From: a virus
IMG/VR virus record: IMGVR_UViG_3300044940_000153
Coordinates: 1-48,796 of that record
Length of the DNA stretch: 48,796 bases
Direction: 5' to 3' (one strand)
Shown: in pieces, positions 1 through 48,796 of the stretch
How the letters are laid out: the number at the start of each line of letters is the position of its first letter
Position numbering within the stretch: the stretch's first letter is position 1
The notes under the pieces: generated by a model
What the model was told of the DNA's origin: nothing
The model's database searches: none
What the model saw: the letters and a program-made list of their open reading frames with translations, nothing else
Program-made: the position numbers and the translations under genes

Positions 1-93
1 GACTATTAAAGAAATTATTAAAGCTATTAGATAAAACCATTGATAATCAACAGTTTTCTTTTACTAAGTCTTTAATAATTTGATGAAATTAGT
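1..93. repeat. Terminal direct repeat, left copy
   Basis: These 93 bases are identical to 48704-48796, so the contig ends overlap and the genome closes into a circle of about 48.7 kb. The repeat is A+T rich with several copies of ATTAAAG. It may be the overlap left by assembly of a circular or circularly permuted molecule rather than a true physical end; the sequence cannot separate these. Confidence 0.95.
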
Positions 94-6421: not shown

Positions 6422-6835
6422 CTAAAACGGTAAATCATTATCCCCCGCGTCAGGCTGACCGGTATTTGCCGGCGCGGATGAAGATTCGCCTTTATATTGT
6501 GTTGCACCTTCCCCGCCGTTTGCATTACCACCCCCCAGTAGTTGCACTTCATTTACAGTAATTACCAACCTACTCACAATCGTACCATTTTTATCCGTGT
6601 AGTGTTCGGTTGACGGCTTACCTTCTACGTACACTTGCGTTCCCTTTTTCAAGTATTCAGACACTTTCAACTGATCGGCTTTTCGCCAATATGCACATTT
6701 TACCCATACCGTCCTTTTCTCATCCTTATACTTTTCGGTATGCGCTACATCGAAGTTGATAACCCAGTTGCCGGACGATGCTTCTTTCGTCGTCGCGTCC
6801 TGACCTAAGTATCCTATGATTGTTGTTTTTAGCAT
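6422..6835 (-). CDS. ssb: Single-stranded DNA-binding protein
   Basis: 137 aa. N-terminal OB fold (~1-100) with the SSB hallmarks: a start MLKTTIIGYLGQDATTK, a Trp-containing strand WVINFDVAHTEKYKD, the motif TVWVKCAYWRKADQL and KKGTQVYVEGKPSTEHYTDKNG. A Gly/Ser/Ala-rich linker follows, then the acidic tip DNDLPF that recruits partner proteins. Coats ssDNA in replication and recombination, probably with the SF3 helicase, primase and Sak4-like ATPase encoded upstream. It follows a terminator at 6862-6895, so it may have its own promoter or depend on read-through. Confidence 0.95.
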   Translation of the reverse strand: MLKTTIIGYLGQDATTKEASSGNWVINFDVAHTEKYKDEKRTVWVKCAYWRKADQLKVSEYLKKGTQVYVEGKPSTEHYTDKNGTIVSRLVITVNEVQLLGGGNANGGEGATQYKGESSSAPANTGQPDAGDNDLPF

Positions 6836-6861
6836 GATTCGGGATGTATTGTTTCGTCAAT

Positions 6862-6895
6862 AAAAAGGGGCAGGTCTTTTCCCTGTTCCCGCCCC
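6862..6895 (-). terminator. Rho-independent terminator after tRNA-like genes
   Basis: On the minus strand GGGGC...GCCCC (6895-6867) with additional internal pairing (CAGG/CCTG) is followed by TTTTTA. It ends the transcript that begins before 7995 and carries the tRNA-like genes, separating it from ssb. Confidence 0.7.
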
Positions 6896-6949
6896 GTGTT
6901 TTTGGTTTTGGGCGTTTTAGCCATAAAACTTCGATATTTTTAGTCTTAT

Positions 6950-7034
6950 ACCGCTCCTCTGTCCTCTGAGGTACTCCCGCTTGATAAAAGTTTGCTTTGA
7001 GCAGGAGAGGGGAATCGAACCCCTGACTTTCGGT
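6950..7034 (-). tRNA. tRNA-like gene B, circularly permuted halves
   Basis: Minus strand, 5' to 3': the 3' half comes first. ACCGA (7034-7030, anticodon stem 39-43), variable AAGTC, T-arm AGGGG-TTCGATT-CCCCT (7024-7008), acceptor CTCCTGC (7007-7001), discriminator T. After a 19-nt linker comes the 5' half: acceptor GCGGGAG (6980-6974), TA, a perfect D-arm CCTC-AGAGGACA-GAGG (6971-6956), A, and GCGGT (6954-6950, positions 27-31). Acceptor halves pair 7/7 (one G-U), the anticodon stem 4/5. Flanks pair further: ATATC/GATAT and TTTTA/TAAAA (6924-6937 with 7041-7053). The anticodon loop cannot be read without knowing how the ends are processed. No conventional cloverleaf fits. Confidence 0.6.
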
Positions 7035-7109
7035 TGTAACATATCTGGTTTTAAGGGTGCAACCCGGAATCTAAGTCTTTCAGCACTAAACTAAACCTGT
7101 TTTGTTCCA

Positions 7110-7194
7110 CTGTTTGCGTCAACGTTGCGCCACCTCCACATATGAAAATTTTTACTTTGTGTAGAGGGTAGGAATCGAACCTACATCTTTACAG
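7110..7194 (-). tRNA. tRNA-like gene A, circularly permuted halves
   Basis: Same permuted layout as gene B. The 3' half first: CTGTA (7194-7190, stem 39-43), variable AAGAT, T-arm GTAGG-TTCGATT-CCTAC (7184-7168), acceptor CCTCTAC (7167-7161), discriminator A. After a 20-nt linker: acceptor GTGGAGG (7139-7133), TG, D-arm GCG-CAACGTTGA-CGC (7130-7116), A, AACAG (7114-7110). Acceptor pairs 7/7 (one G-U), anticodon stem 4/5. Outer pairings AAAAC/GTTTT and AAGACTT/AAGTCTT link the flanks; the latter uses the final codons of the 7219-7995 gene. The loop lacks an evident U33, so decoding function is unproven. Confidence 0.6.
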
Positions 7195-7218
7195 TTTCCC
7201 GTAAAACTCAATCTAAAA

Positions 7219-7995
7219 CTAAGACTTGGCTGAAAATAAATCTTTATGTAAATAGTCAAACAAACGATCCATTAATTTGACTTGTACAGCTTCACATTGG
7301 TTTGCCCGAATCCGTGCGTTGTCAACTGCAACAATGATCTTATCAATCCGTTGCAATAACATTGCCTTCGTGTGAACATCAGTTGCACCGGAAAAATATG
7401 TTCTATGTACCTTGCCGATCGGAACATCATCCGTCCACTTCTCAATCTTGAAATCATGCTTTCCTGTAAGGTCGTTGAATTGCTGAAAACGCAACATCTT
7501 TTTCAACTTATCTTTCGATTCGGTATTAGATTGCCAACGTTCTGATCTTTCGTTGGATTGTATTTGCTCCCAACGTTTAGCAGTATCTCGCAAAGGTATT
7601 TTGTCGTAAATCTCACGTAAACGAACCAACATTTTACCCAAAGCTAAAAACGAAATAGCGGAATACGAACCATAATCTTCCCCGTCAATAATTAGGTTTG
7701 CTTTTGCATTCCCGGAAGCGTTCGTTTCTTCTTTCGACAAGGTAATGTTAAATATGTCCCCGATTTGGTCAGCAAGGAATAGTAGTTCTGTCTTTACAGT
7801 TGCCTCTACTTCCTTATCAGTTACATCAACACTTTCCGAATTGCCGTTTTCATCTACCGCCTTAGGTTCAAAGCGTTCTGTGTATCCAACATAGCGTTCG
7901 GGTTTAGAGAAAGATTTAGCGGTGTCCTGAAGCAAAATGTTTATTGCGGATTTTTTATGTTCCTCCGCTCCAATGATTTCGTTTAGCTTTGCCAT
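7219..7995 (-). CDS. Conserved phage protein of the MAKLNEII type
   Basis: 258 aa. The start MAKLNEIIGAEEHKKSAI matches a phage family of unknown function (DUF7873-like) seen in many unrelated phages. The start is set at 7995 because the -7 element TATCTTTG (8022-8015) lies within the longer frame. The middle (residues ~60-150) is helical with a Gly-rich turn; the C-terminus has KVHRTYFSGATDVH and a long helix. No catalytic motif is evident. It is the first gene of the transcript that also carries the tRNA-like genes. Confidence 0.75.
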   Translation of the reverse strand: MAKLNEIIGAEEHKKSAINILLQDTAKSFSKPERYVGYTERFEPKAVDENGNSESVDVTDKEVEATVKTELLFLADQIGDIFNITLSKEETNASGNAKANLIIDGEDYGSYSAISFLALGKMLVRLREIYDKIPLRDTAKRWEQIQSNERSERWQSNTESKDKLKKMLRFQQFNDLTGKHDFKIEKWTDDVPIGKVHRTYFSGATDVHTKAMLLQRIDKIIVAVDNARIRANQCEAVQVKLMDRLFDYLHKDLFSAKS

Positions 7996-8014
7996 TTGTC
8001 TGTGTTTGATTGTA

Positions 8015-8045
8015 CAAAGATATAGCACCGATTTTACCCGCGCAA
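8015..8045 (-). promoter_or_regulatory. Bacteroidota-type promoter for 7995 gene
   Basis: Minus strand TTG (8045-8043), 20-bp spacer, TATCTTTG (8022-8015), fitting the TAnnTTTG -7 consensus. Predicted transcription starts about 15-20 nt before the ATG at 7995. Confidence 0.7.
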
Positions 8046-11135: not shown

Positions 11136-12986
11136 TCAATACTTTGCCTTAATAACTAATGTCGTCGGCTTCACCTGTACCTCGTTCACTTGCGCTAAAA
11201 TGTAGTTCCCGCCGGCTTTAATACGAATAGACAGATTAAAATTGATTTGTCCTAACGAATTAAACAATCCTTCAAAAATTTCACATTCTTTATCAATTTC
11301 CAACTCAACACCACGACCTACTAATACAGCTTGATTTATTGGATCAAGGTCGGTAAAGAACTGCCAGAGGTTCGGAAATAAAGATGATCGTTTGATAGAA
11401 TTAGGCTGATTGTCATAACGCCCAAACGGATTATAAGCCGGTAGAGACGCATCAACCCACATCGGATAGTTATAGTTCTTTCCGTCTGATGATGGGAATC
11501 GTACAACATATGCTTGCTTTGGATCGTAATTATTCTCCAAGCAAACTAATTTAGGAACACCTATCTTGCCGGACGACAAAAGCATCACATCTTCCCATTC
11601 AGGCTTAACAATGTCTAAACCAAAGAACCCGAATACATCAAATAAGGGGCTGAATACTTCCAAAGGATCGGGTGCAAGATTATCCCCGCGTCCGCGCATA
11701 GAGGCAAATTGGAAATGAATATCTGTAAACCCGTCTTGATTTGCGCCAGCCGGCTCGAAAGGTACGGTATCATCAAATAAGTATTTCGCGCGGTCAGTGC
11801 AAGTATCGTAATTGTCCGGTTGGTAAGTCAGGCGTGCGCCGACGGGATAGGGTGGGTCTTCAAAGGAGAAGCATTTAGATTTGATGGGCGGAACGTCATC
11901 GCTCGATAAGTCTAACCATAACCGCCGAATGGATGAACGTTTTTCAAATCGTAAGACCGTCCCATCCAAATACCATTCAGCGTTAAAAACGGTTGCTAAT
12001 CTGTCCAATAGTTCCCCTAATGTCCAGTTGGGAGCGTTACGACTGAAATAAACATAAGCATTTCCATTAACATTCGTATAGTCGTGGAAGTCCTCCCTGC
12101 CTTCATCATTCGGCGAATTGAGTAAACATAAGTTATAATAAGCATTCGACGGATTATTAAGTATGCTCGATTCAAACGTAACGGTAGGGTCAACTGCAAA
12201 TATCGCATTGTTAATATACGAACGAACCAATACACCGTAATGTGCATCCCCGCAACCCGTCATCCACTTAGGTAGTTGTTCTGTAAATATGGAACGGAAT
12301 TGATCGAAACCGGAAGTTGCCGAGTCCCAAACATCGTCTAAAGAAATAGGTTCACCGCCAAATAAACTACCGAGAAATGATATAATCGCATTGATTATCC
12401 CAACAATTACCCCAATTATGAAGAATAATGGTTGCATAATGATAAATGTAAGCGATATAAACGAACCTATGACTATTATAAAATACTGAATAGCTGATGG
12501 CTCAAAGAATAGGCAATACGGCACTTCGACGTGCGGGATGTCCCAAAAGCGTCTTCCGTCCCGCGTAATATTGTTCTTTTGAATCAATGACGTTCGCAAC
12601 CTTTTCAGTAAAGTAACGCCGTCTGTGTATTCTTCAGATGAAGTATTGACTACACATTCAGTTCGTTCGTAATCGTCTACTTCGCACCAATCAATCGTCT
12701 TAGCCGTGATTAATCCAACATATATCAACTGCTCCGGCTTACAACAATCGTCGTACACCTTTAATATGATGCCGTTTTCACGAAAGTTAGGCGAATCAAC
12801 CAAATGACGCATGAGATAATCCCGTGCCGATCCATAAAAAGATATGTTAGCGGAAAAGGATGTAGCCAAGTCCCCGTCATCTTCCCGACGGAGAACAATG
12901 TCAGCATCGGACAAATCTGAATATAAACCAGTATCCACTTCCCCGTAATCCGGCAGATTTCCAGCACCCTCAAGAATTAGTCTCAT
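11136..12986 (-). CDS. Tail/baseplate protein with internal hydrophobic hairpin
   Basis: 616 aa. The N-terminus (~1-160) is beta-rich and resembles tail-hub or baseplate proteins of Bacteroidota phages. Residues ~168-212 form two strongly hydrophobic segments (FIIVIGSFISLTFIIMQPLF, FIIGVIVGIINAIISFLGSL), unusual for a virion protein. The C-terminal ~400 residues are again beta-rich with several Cys. The hydrophobic insert could enter the host envelope during DNA ejection; this is inference. It overlaps the preceding small-terminase candidate by 17 nt. Confidence 0.65.
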   Translation of the reverse strand: MRLILEGAGNLPDYGEVDTGLYSDLSDADIVLRREDDGDLATSFSANISFYGSARDYLMRHLVDSPNFRENGIILKVYDDCCKPEQLIYVGLITAKTIDWCEVDDYERTECVVNTSSEEYTDGVTLLKRLRTSLIQKNNITRDGRRFWDIPHVEVPYCLFFEPSAIQYFIIVIGSFISLTFIIMQPLFFIIGVIVGIINAIISFLGSLFGGEPISLDDVWDSATSGFDQFRSIFTEQLPKWMTGCGDAHYGVLVRSYINNAIFAVDPTVTFESSILNNPSNAYYNLCLLNSPNDEGREDFHDYTNVNGNAYVYFSRNAPNWTLGELLDRLATVFNAEWYLDGTVLRFEKRSSIRRLWLDLSSDDVPPIKSKCFSFEDPPYPVGARLTYQPDNYDTCTDRAKYLFDDTVPFEPAGANQDGFTDIHFQFASMRGRGDNLAPDPLEVFSPLFDVFGFFGLDIVKPEWEDVMLLSSGKIGVPKLVCLENNYDPKQAYVVRFPSSDGKNYNYPMWVDASLPAYNPFGRYDNQPNSIKRSSLFPNLWQFFTDLDPINQAVLVGRGVELEIDKECEIFEGLFNSLGQINFNLSIRIKAGGNYILAQVNEVQVKPTTLVIKAKY

Positions 12987-20657: not shown

Positions 20658-20680
20658 ACTGTTTTTGTTTGAGGTTTAAG

Positions 20681-20728
20681 AAAACGCGTCGGGAGTCGAA
20701 CCCGAAACCGCCCTTTGCGACGCGTCTT
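20681..20728 (-). other. T-arm-like hairpin in 5' leader
   Basis: On the minus strand a perfect T-arm TCGGG-TTCGACT-CCCGA (20705-20689) is enclosed by AAGACGCG...CGCGTTTT, which could pair like an acceptor stem. The 14-nt segment between is too short for D and anticodon arms. The alternative fold AAGACGCGTCG/CGACGCGTTTT is an 11-bp stem ending in TTTTCTT and could attenuate transcription. Either a tRNA remnant or mimic, or a leader terminator for the ATPase gene. Upstream, CATATATG occurs twice (20758-20778). Confidence 0.4.
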
Positions 20729-20834
20729 TATCAAAAATCACTACTCTTTTAATACTTCATATATGATTTCCATATATGCTCCATTTTCAATTTCTACGAA
20801 AGACTAATTATTTGCCACTTTCTACTCCTTTCCG

Positions 20835-48703: not shown

Positions 48704-48796
48704 GACTATTAAAGAAATTATTAAAGCTATTAGATAAAACCATTGATAATCAACAGTTTTCTTTTACTAAGTCTTTAATAATTTGATGAAATTAGT
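48704..48796. repeat. Terminal direct repeat, right copy
   Basis: Exact copy of 1-93. See the left copy. Confidence 0.95.

What the first reader, a model, noticed from the sequence alone, without database searches (positions are those of the whole stretch)
6924..7221. Two adjacent circularly permuted tRNA-like genes in a phage
Seen: both units present variable loop, T-arm and 3' acceptor FIRST, then a 19-20 nt linker, then 5' acceptor and D-arm. In each unit the acceptor halves pair 7/7 with one G-U (CCTCTAC/GTGGAGG; CTCCTGC/GCGGGAG) and the anticodon stem halves pair 4/5 with the mismatch at the same place (27-43). Cross-pairing does not work: the acceptor of 5' half A and 3' half B has a mismatch and three wobbles, and their anticodon stems do not pair. 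The flanks of each unit also pair further (ATATC/GATAT and TTTTA/TAAAA in B; AAAAC/GTTTT and AAGACTT/AAGTCTT in A), forming the extended stem expected of a permuted pre-tRNA. Known: permuted tRNA genes exist in some algae and archaea; two-piece tmRNA comes from permuted genes in some bacteria. I know of no established case in a tailed phage. The missing clear U33 leaves open a tRNA mimic or circular RNA with another role.
Basis: partly seen in the sequence, partly recalled or inferred. Interest (0 to 1): 0.92.

Follow-up and report, generated by a model that had tools for sequence, protein, structure and literature searches.

The report
Two phage tRNA-mimic RNAs (YrlA-like)
A small, probably Bacteroidota-infecting phage carries two side-by-side RNAs that look like tRNAs with their halves swapped; comparison with other phages and bacteria shows they are most likely not scrambled tRNA genes but tRNA look-alikes of the known bacterial Y RNA kind, here unusually without the partner protein gene that normally sits beside them.

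Summary
On the minus strand, units A and B (about 7230-7084 and 7053-6924) have perfect 7/7 acceptor pairing, T arms and D arms in swapped order. No dinucleotide shuffle of the window among 400 scored as high. The interpretation changes. The order T arm, acceptor, loop, acceptor, D arm is the tRNA-like module of bacterial Y RNAs (Rfam YrlA), whose acceptor stem is closed by a loop. YrlA is the top Rfam family for unit B (27.6 bits, below the gathering score). The same architecture in other phages, found by a scan that did not use Ro60, lies on contigs with a Ro60/TROVE gene in 10 of 10 cases (4 of 24 control contigs). In Chryseobacterium it forms tandem pairs near Ro60, one unit with an 18-27 nt linker like the 20-21 nt here. 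In both window units position 73 pairs with -1, as expected of a hairpin cap and not of a pre-tRNA. No tRNA-like anticodon loop can be assembled. But this phage genome, probably complete (93-bp end repeat), has no detectable Ro60 gene, and the Ro60-binding foot is not recognisable. I call them YrlA-type tRNA mimics, an atypical variant of a known kind, not permuted tRNA genes.

The parts
7084..7230 (-). Unit A, YrlA-type tRNA mimic (approximate full extent including outer stem; its first bases overlap the 3' end of gene 7219-8028)
7185..7216 (-). Unit A 5' side: UUAC-containing stretch (GAGTTTTACGGGAAACTGT) and variable-loop region
   Evidence: weak resemblance to the UUAC(UUCG/AGCA) stretch at this place in phage and Chryseobacterium Y RNAs
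7168..7184 (-). Unit A T arm (GTAGG-TTCGATT-CCTAC)
7161..7167 (-). Unit A acceptor 3' strand CCTCTAC
   Evidence: Pairs 7/7 with 7139-7133
7140..7160 (-). Unit A 21-nt linker closing the acceptor stem; first and last bases pair (A-T) and a small hairpin forms
7133..7139 (-). Unit A acceptor 5' strand GTGGAGG
7116..7130 (-). Unit A D arm (GCG-CAACGTTGA-CGC, 3 bp, no GG in the loop)
6924..7053 (-). Unit B, YrlA-type tRNA mimic, full extent including outer stem TAAAA/TTTTA and GATAT/ATATC
   Evidence: Rfam YrlA full-length match 7052-6922, 27.6 bits, E 6e-4, below gathering; models R1 45.8 bits and R2 36.6 bits; fold
7008..7024 (-). Unit B T arm (AGGGG-TTCGATT-CCCCT)
7001..7007 (-). Unit B acceptor 3' strand CTCCTGC
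   Evidence: Pairs 7/7 with 6980-6974
6981..7000 (-). Unit B 20-nt linker closing the acceptor stem (T-A eighth pair, small hairpin)
6974..6980 (-). Unit B acceptor 5' strand GCGGGAG
6956..6971 (-). Unit B D arm (CCTC-AGAGGACA-GAGG, GG in the loop)
6861..6895 (-). Putative intrinsic terminator just downstream of unit B (GGGGCGGG...CTGCCCC hairpin followed by TTTTTA)
   Evidence: Fold; its loop is too long for the scan, which did not list it

Best explanation
Units A and B are two small non-coding RNAs of the YrlA (bacterial Y RNA-like) kind. Each mimics the T arm, D arm and acceptor stem of a tRNA, with the acceptor stem closed by a loop, and has a stem formed by its own 5' and 3' ends where a tRNA would have its anticodon arm. 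The 'permuted' order is the normal order of this RNA class, so no splicing or circularisation is needed. Likely working (inferred): the RNAs are transcribed behind gene 7219-8028 and end at the hairpin behind unit B; tRNA enzymes that read T and D arms can bind them; through the outer stem they dock on a Ro60/Rsr-type protein, which must come from the host because this phage has none that I can detect, and so redirect host RNA decay or protect RNA during infection. Shown: the tRNA-mimic module, its predicted capping, the tandem pair, its match to YrlA and to Ro60-linked RNAs elsewhere, and the lack of a detectable Ro60 gene here. Inferred: transcription, the protein partner and the effect. The confidence given is for the identity (YrlA-type mimic); for the host-Ro60 step alone I would say about 0.4.
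For: Rfam's best family for B is YrlA over the full model (27.6 bits, E 6e-4, below gathering). The same swapped units, outside any ARAGORN tRNA, occur in many phages and match YrlA at up to 41 bits. They lie near Ro60/TROVE genes in phage G, Kikimora, Frankenweenie, BRock, CcrColossus, L062 and L099. A scan that did not use Ro60 gave 11 loci, 10 of them swapped units, all 10 on contigs with Ro60; control tRNA-rich contigs 4 of 24. In bacteria the same pattern finds mostly Chryseobacterium, with tandem pairs, one unit usually with an 18-27 nt linker, and Ro60 in 39 of the 49 loci of 8 kb. A model built only from those Flavobacteriales RNAs (R2) retrieves most phage units over its whole length at 40-73 bits, and finds window B at 36.6 bits (E 1e-6) and A at 24.9 bits (E 7e-4). 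Position 73 pairs with -1 in both window units and in 14 of 26 others by Watson-Crick pairing (chance 25%, P 0.0015). About 8% of sampled Bacteroidota genomes have TROVE (24 of 297). Published YrlA anatomy matches: D, T and acceptor arms, stem from the 5' and 3' ends, Rsr and PNPase binding, DusA/TruB substrate (PMC8394870). Y RNAs are reported in mycobacteriophages (PMC12282133).
Against: The window genome has no detectable Ro60/TROVE gene, although it looks complete (93-bp end repeat). R2 matches only the tRNA-like part of B (model positions 42-113) and A only weakly, so the Ro60-binding foot is not recognisable. The YrlA score is below Rfam's gathering cut-off. The models also score ordinary tandem tRNA arrays at 30-60 bits, so their scores alone do not prove membership; the window has no tRNA array, which helps. 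No close relative was found to test covariation of A and B themselves.
Confidence: 0.73

Rival explanations
1. Ro60-independent tRNA mimics: the same kind of capped tRNA-like module, but freed from Ro60, acting as a decoy or dock for tRNA-binding enzymes (tRNA-targeting defence nucleases, PNPase, modification enzymes) during infection. This shares the identity of the best explanation and differs in the partner and effect.
For: No Ro60 gene and no recognisable Ro60 foot in the window, while the tRNA-like module is intact in both copies. Some other viral contigs with such units also lack a detectable Ro60 gene (L049, L206, L207, L210, L211). A decoy role for YrlA against an anticodon nuclease has been suggested in Salmonella (PMC7790460).
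Against: Wherever tested without using Ro60 in the choice, the short-loop module travels with Ro60. The other Ro60-less contigs may be fragments. There is no anticodon loop for an anticodon nuclease to cut. A host Ro60 cannot be excluded.
Confidence: 0.3
2. Genuine circularly permuted tRNA genes: the precursor is cut by RNase P and RNase Z/E at the linker and the anticodon-loop ends are joined by an RNA ligase to give two working tRNAs.
For: 7/7 acceptor pairing, T and D arms and about 4/5 anticodon-side pairing in swapped order; permuted tRNA genes are known in algae and archaea (PMC3978253, PMC3218864, listed).
Against: No U33 and no consistent 7-nt anticodon loop can be assembled in either unit. 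The discriminator base pairs with -1 in both. The layout is that of Y RNAs near Ro60. No RNA ligase or tRNA-splicing endonuclease was found among the window proteins scanned. No paper on permuted tRNA genes in phages turned up in the library searched.
Confidence: 0.08
3. Pseudogene debris: remains of a former tRNA array that happen to pair in swapped order.
For: Unit A has an imperfect D arm without GG in the loop; the phage has no tRNA genes now.
Against: Both acceptors pair 7/7 although the two units differ at three of seven acceptor pairs by changes on both sides; 0 of 400 shuffles score as high; the free fold recovers both modules.
Confidence: 0.05
4. Piece of a permuted (two-piece) tmRNA.
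For: Partial hits to tmRNA_permuted (19.7 and 16.6 bits) and beta_tmRNA (about 22 bits) over the T arm and acceptor.
Against: Only the shared T arm and acceptor match, far below gathering (47 and 84 bits); both units have a D arm of tRNA type, which tmRNA lacks; no tag frame or pseudoknots identified.
Confidence: 0.02

Closest known systems
YrlA / bacterial Y RNA (Rfam RF02553; Salmonella YrlA, PDB 6CU1; Chen et al. 2014; described in PMC8394870)
   Same: Order T arm, acceptor, loop, acceptor, D arm; stem made by the RNA's own ends; similar length (90-150 nt in the literature)
   Different: No Ro60/rsr gene in the phage genome; Ro60-binding foot not recognisable; score below the Rfam gathering cut-off; 20-21 nt hairpin cap
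Chryseobacterium tandem Y RNA pairs near Ro60 (loci L154-L202 here)
   Same: Tandem pair; one member usually has an 18-27 nt A-rich linker closing the acceptor stem; same phylum as the likely host
   Different: They have the foot CAAG(U)GYCGU / RCCUUG and a nearby Ro60 gene; the window units have neither
Phage Y RNAs near Ro60 (phage G, CcrColossus, Kikimora, Frankenweenie, BRock; mycobacteriophages by literature)
   Same: Capped tRNA-like module, often two or more in a row; phage G has a 25-nt linker
   Different: Those are large phages with their own Ro60 and mostly with tRNA genes; the window phage is small (48.8 kb), has no tRNA gene and no detectable Ro60
Circularly permuted tRNA genes of algae and archaea
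   Same: 3' half precedes 5' half
   Different: Those restore an anticodon loop by splicing at a bulge-helix-bulge motif; here no anticodon loop can be restored and the linker looks like a stable cap

Membership tests
YrlA / bacterial Y RNA | tRNA-like module in the order T arm, acceptor strand, loop, acceptor strand, D arm | tested here: met
YrlA / bacterial Y RNA | Acceptor stem closed by a loop, with no tRNA 3' end | tested here: met
   Folds close the linker as a hairpin with an eighth pair 73:-1 in both units; whether it stays uncut in vivo is not testable here
YrlA / bacterial Y RNA | Score at or above the Rfam RF02553 gathering cut-off | tested here: not met
   27.6 bits against 69; a phage unit beside Ro60 also falls below it (L062 contig 30.1 bits), so the cut-off misses phage members
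YrlA / bacterial Y RNA | Long stem made by 5' and 3' ends | tested here: inconclusive
   Predicted in both, but 1-25% of flank shuffles do as well in energy
YrlA / bacterial Y RNA | Ro60-binding foot motif | tested here: not met
   R2 aligns only positions 42-113 for B, and A scores only 24.9 bits
YrlA / bacterial Y RNA | Ro60/Rsr gene in the same genome | tested here: not met
   PF05731, the phage G protein and a 12-protein phage Ro60 profile (E<=10) find nothing in the window; a host gene remains possible (8% of sampled Bacteroidota)
YrlA / bacterial Y RNA | Binding of Rsr and PNPase | not testable with these tools
   Needs biochemistry
Circularly permuted tRNA gene | 3' half precedes 5' half with cloverleaf pairing | tested here: met
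Circularly permuted tRNA gene | Anticodon loop of 7 nt with U33 restored after joining | tested here: not met
   By inspection no junction of the two halves gives it in A or B
Circularly permuted tRNA gene | Mature tRNA with CCA detected | not testable with these tools
   Needs RNA
Permuted tmRNA | Match to RF04321 at gathering score, with a tag frame | tested here: not met
   19.7 and 16.6 bits against 47

The most novel reading that the evidence does not exclude
A small phage carries a pair of Ro60-independent, capped tRNA mimics that keep only the tRNA-like half of a Y RNA and use it on its own, for example to occupy tRNA-targeting defence enzymes or to take over host PNPase.
Probability: 0.28. 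Interest if true: 0.65.

Novelty: new variant of a known kind. Interest (0 to 1): 0.45.

Why it matters
It replaces a startling claim (permuted tRNA genes in a phage) with a testable one. The comparison also suggests that swapped 'tRNA' units in phages are usually Y RNAs travelling with Ro60, that ARAGORN and Rfam's gathering cut-off miss them in the loci examined, and that parts of some are deposited as ordinary tRNAs. If the window pair really works without Ro60, it would separate the tRNA-mimic half of a Y RNA from its Ro60 half and make the function of that half testable.

Tried and rejected
Blastn of the locus against phages: nothing. Protein relatives of two window genes in viral contigs and one in genomes: none close; only remote helicase, primase and terminase relatives. 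First thought of a circularly permuted group I intron around a tRNA: no intron match in the window or in related loci. tmRNA rejected. Ordinary cloverleaf from 5' half A plus 3' half B: the acceptor has a mismatch and three wobbles by inspection. A divergent Ro60 among the large unknown window proteins: the 671 and 616 aa proteins give no Pfam match and no meaningful PDB match, and a search for a MIDAS-like motif in all frames found none. Some swapped hits in tRNA arrays (L088, L067, most of L012) were set aside as likely chance neighbours of ordinary tRNAs. Covariation of the swapped acceptor in 24 relatives is strong, but those units were partly chosen by that pairing, so I do not lean on it.

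Full report
What is there. The window is a whole IMG/VR record of 48,796 bases with an exact 93-base repeat at its two ends, so it is probably a complete phage genome. Gene content points to a phage of Bacteroidota (DUF6371 protein, primase relatives in Bacteroides and Polaribacter phages); this host is an inference. On the minus strand, between gene 7219-8028 (DUF7873) and the single-strand binding protein gene 6422-6835, lie two units of about 130-150 nt.

Check of the observation. Each unit has, in this order, a variable-loop-like stretch, a T arm with the loop TTCGATT, the 3' strand of an acceptor stem, a linker of 21 (A) or 20 (B) nt, the 5' strand of the acceptor stem, and a D arm. Both acceptors pair 7 of 7 with one G-U. 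The unconstrained fold of 6915-7245 recovers both. A finder for this layout gave 36.5 (B) and 35.5 (A); in 400 dinucleotide shuffles of the whole window the best score was 34.0. The two units differ at acceptor pairs 2, 5 and 6 by changes on both sides, and their linkers are alike (CAAAG..AAA..TTTT), so they look like an old duplication that kept pairing (inference). The outer flank pairing is less certain: 1-25% of flank shuffles fold as stably.

What it is. ARAGORN and Rfam at gathering score are silent. At a relaxed threshold the best Rfam family for unit B is RF02553, YrlA, over its whole length (27.6 bits, E 6e-4). YrlA is a bacterial Y RNA: a stem made by its own ends carries a domain like the D, T and acceptor arms of tRNA (PMC8394870). 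Written along the strand, that domain is a 'permuted tRNA' whose acceptor stem is closed by a loop.

Test on other genomes. A scan of viral contigs with a T-arm plus linker pattern brought tRNA-rich phages; among them, units of the same layout lie outside ARAGORN tRNAs, several with linkers of only 4-9 nt, and match YrlA at up to 41 bits. In L062 a 518-aa protein with a TROVE match and a PDB TROVE relative starts about 400 bases after the unit. Its relatives in named phages have such units upstream within about 2.2 kb: phage G, Kikimora, Frankenweenie, BRock, CcrColossus. A second scan, restricted only by pyrimidine and purine runs in the acceptor and a 3-9 nt gap, gave 11 loci; 10 are swapped units (with L125 and L132 by inspection) and all 10 contigs carry Ro60 by a 12-protein profile (the L135 contig only at E 0.001). 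L129, an ordinary tRNA, does not; in 24 control contigs, L129 included, 4 do.

The same pattern in bacterial genomes returned mostly Chryseobacterium, with tandem pairs: one unit usually with an 8-nt loop and one usually with an 18-27 nt linker. A Ro60 gene lies in 39 of the 49 loci of 8 kb. A covariance model made only from these (R2) retrieves most phage units over the full model at 40-73 bits. It finds window B at 36.6 bits but only over the tRNA-like part, and window A at 24.9 bits. The model from phage units (R1) gives B 45.8 and A 29.7 bits; ordinary tRNA arrays can reach 30-60 bits with R1, so these scores support but do not prove.

Mimic or precursor. In both window units the base after the acceptor (73) pairs with the base before it (-1), A-T in one and T-A in the other; 14 of 26 other units do so by Watson-Crick pairing (chance 25%, P 0.0015). 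This lengthens the stem under a loop, and is not what RNase P and RNase Z substrates usually show (general knowledge). By inspection no junction of the halves restores U33 and a 7-nt anticodon loop. I therefore reject permuted tRNA genes as the leading explanation.

What does not fit. The window has no Ro60 gene by PF05731, by the phage G protein, or by the phage profile at E<=10, and no recognisable Ro60 foot. Membership in the Y RNA family is thus not fully met; the claim that it works like the tRNA-mimic half of YrlA stands. Ro60 occurs in 24 of 297 sampled Bacteroidota genomes, so a host protein could serve. The alternative is a Ro60-free mimic; for Salmonella YrlA a decoy role against an anticodon nuclease has been proposed but not shown (PMC7790460).

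Novelty. Y RNAs have been reported in mycobacteriophages and proposed in a Listeria phage (PMC12282133), and Ro60/TROVE in jumbo phages (PMC7824862). The kind is known. A pair in a small phage without Ro60 is a variant I have not found described in the library searched; most subscription papers were not available, including the key 2014 and 2020 Y RNA papers.

Noticed in passing
L117:2673-2763, L116:2886-2960, L119:2128-2195: Deposited tRNA-Pro, tRNA-Ser and tRNA-Gln genes just upstream of phage Ro60 genes (Frankenweenie, Kikimora, CcrColossus) overlap Y RNA units and are probably misannotated pieces of them; CcrColossus has up to five such units in a row by model R2.
   Followed up: partly
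L206:3866-3997(-), L208 about 12260-12450, L210:6372-6500, L211:2339-2459: A second class of capped tRNA mimics in viral contigs with 14-28 nt linkers and a shared foot: near GGUCGAAG on the 5' side and UUAAACGGAGAA on the 3' side. The L206, L210 and L211 contigs show no Ro60 gene.
   Followed up: partly
window 20676-20735 (-): A lone T-arm-like hairpin (TCGGG-TTCGACT-CCCGA) flanked by AAGACGCG / CGCGTTTT, between two genes; perhaps a third tRNA-like fragment or an attachment-site remnant.
   Followed up: no
L009:9827-10147 and L116:6461-6806: Permuted tmRNA (Rfam RF04321) in two phages, each also holding Y-RNA-like units.
   Followed up: no
L049:11497-11566 and L088:10301-10363: Rfam skipping-rope and freshwater-1 RNAs inside phage tRNA arrays.
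   Followed up: no
window 7219-8028 (-): DUF7873 gene directly before the RNA pair; relatives at about 30% identity in large phages of Klebsiella, Vibrio, Rhizobium and Arthrobacter; its last bases overlap the start of unit A.
   Followed up: partly
window 1-93 and 48704-48796: Exact 93-base direct repeat of the record's ends, suggesting a complete genome.
   Followed up: no
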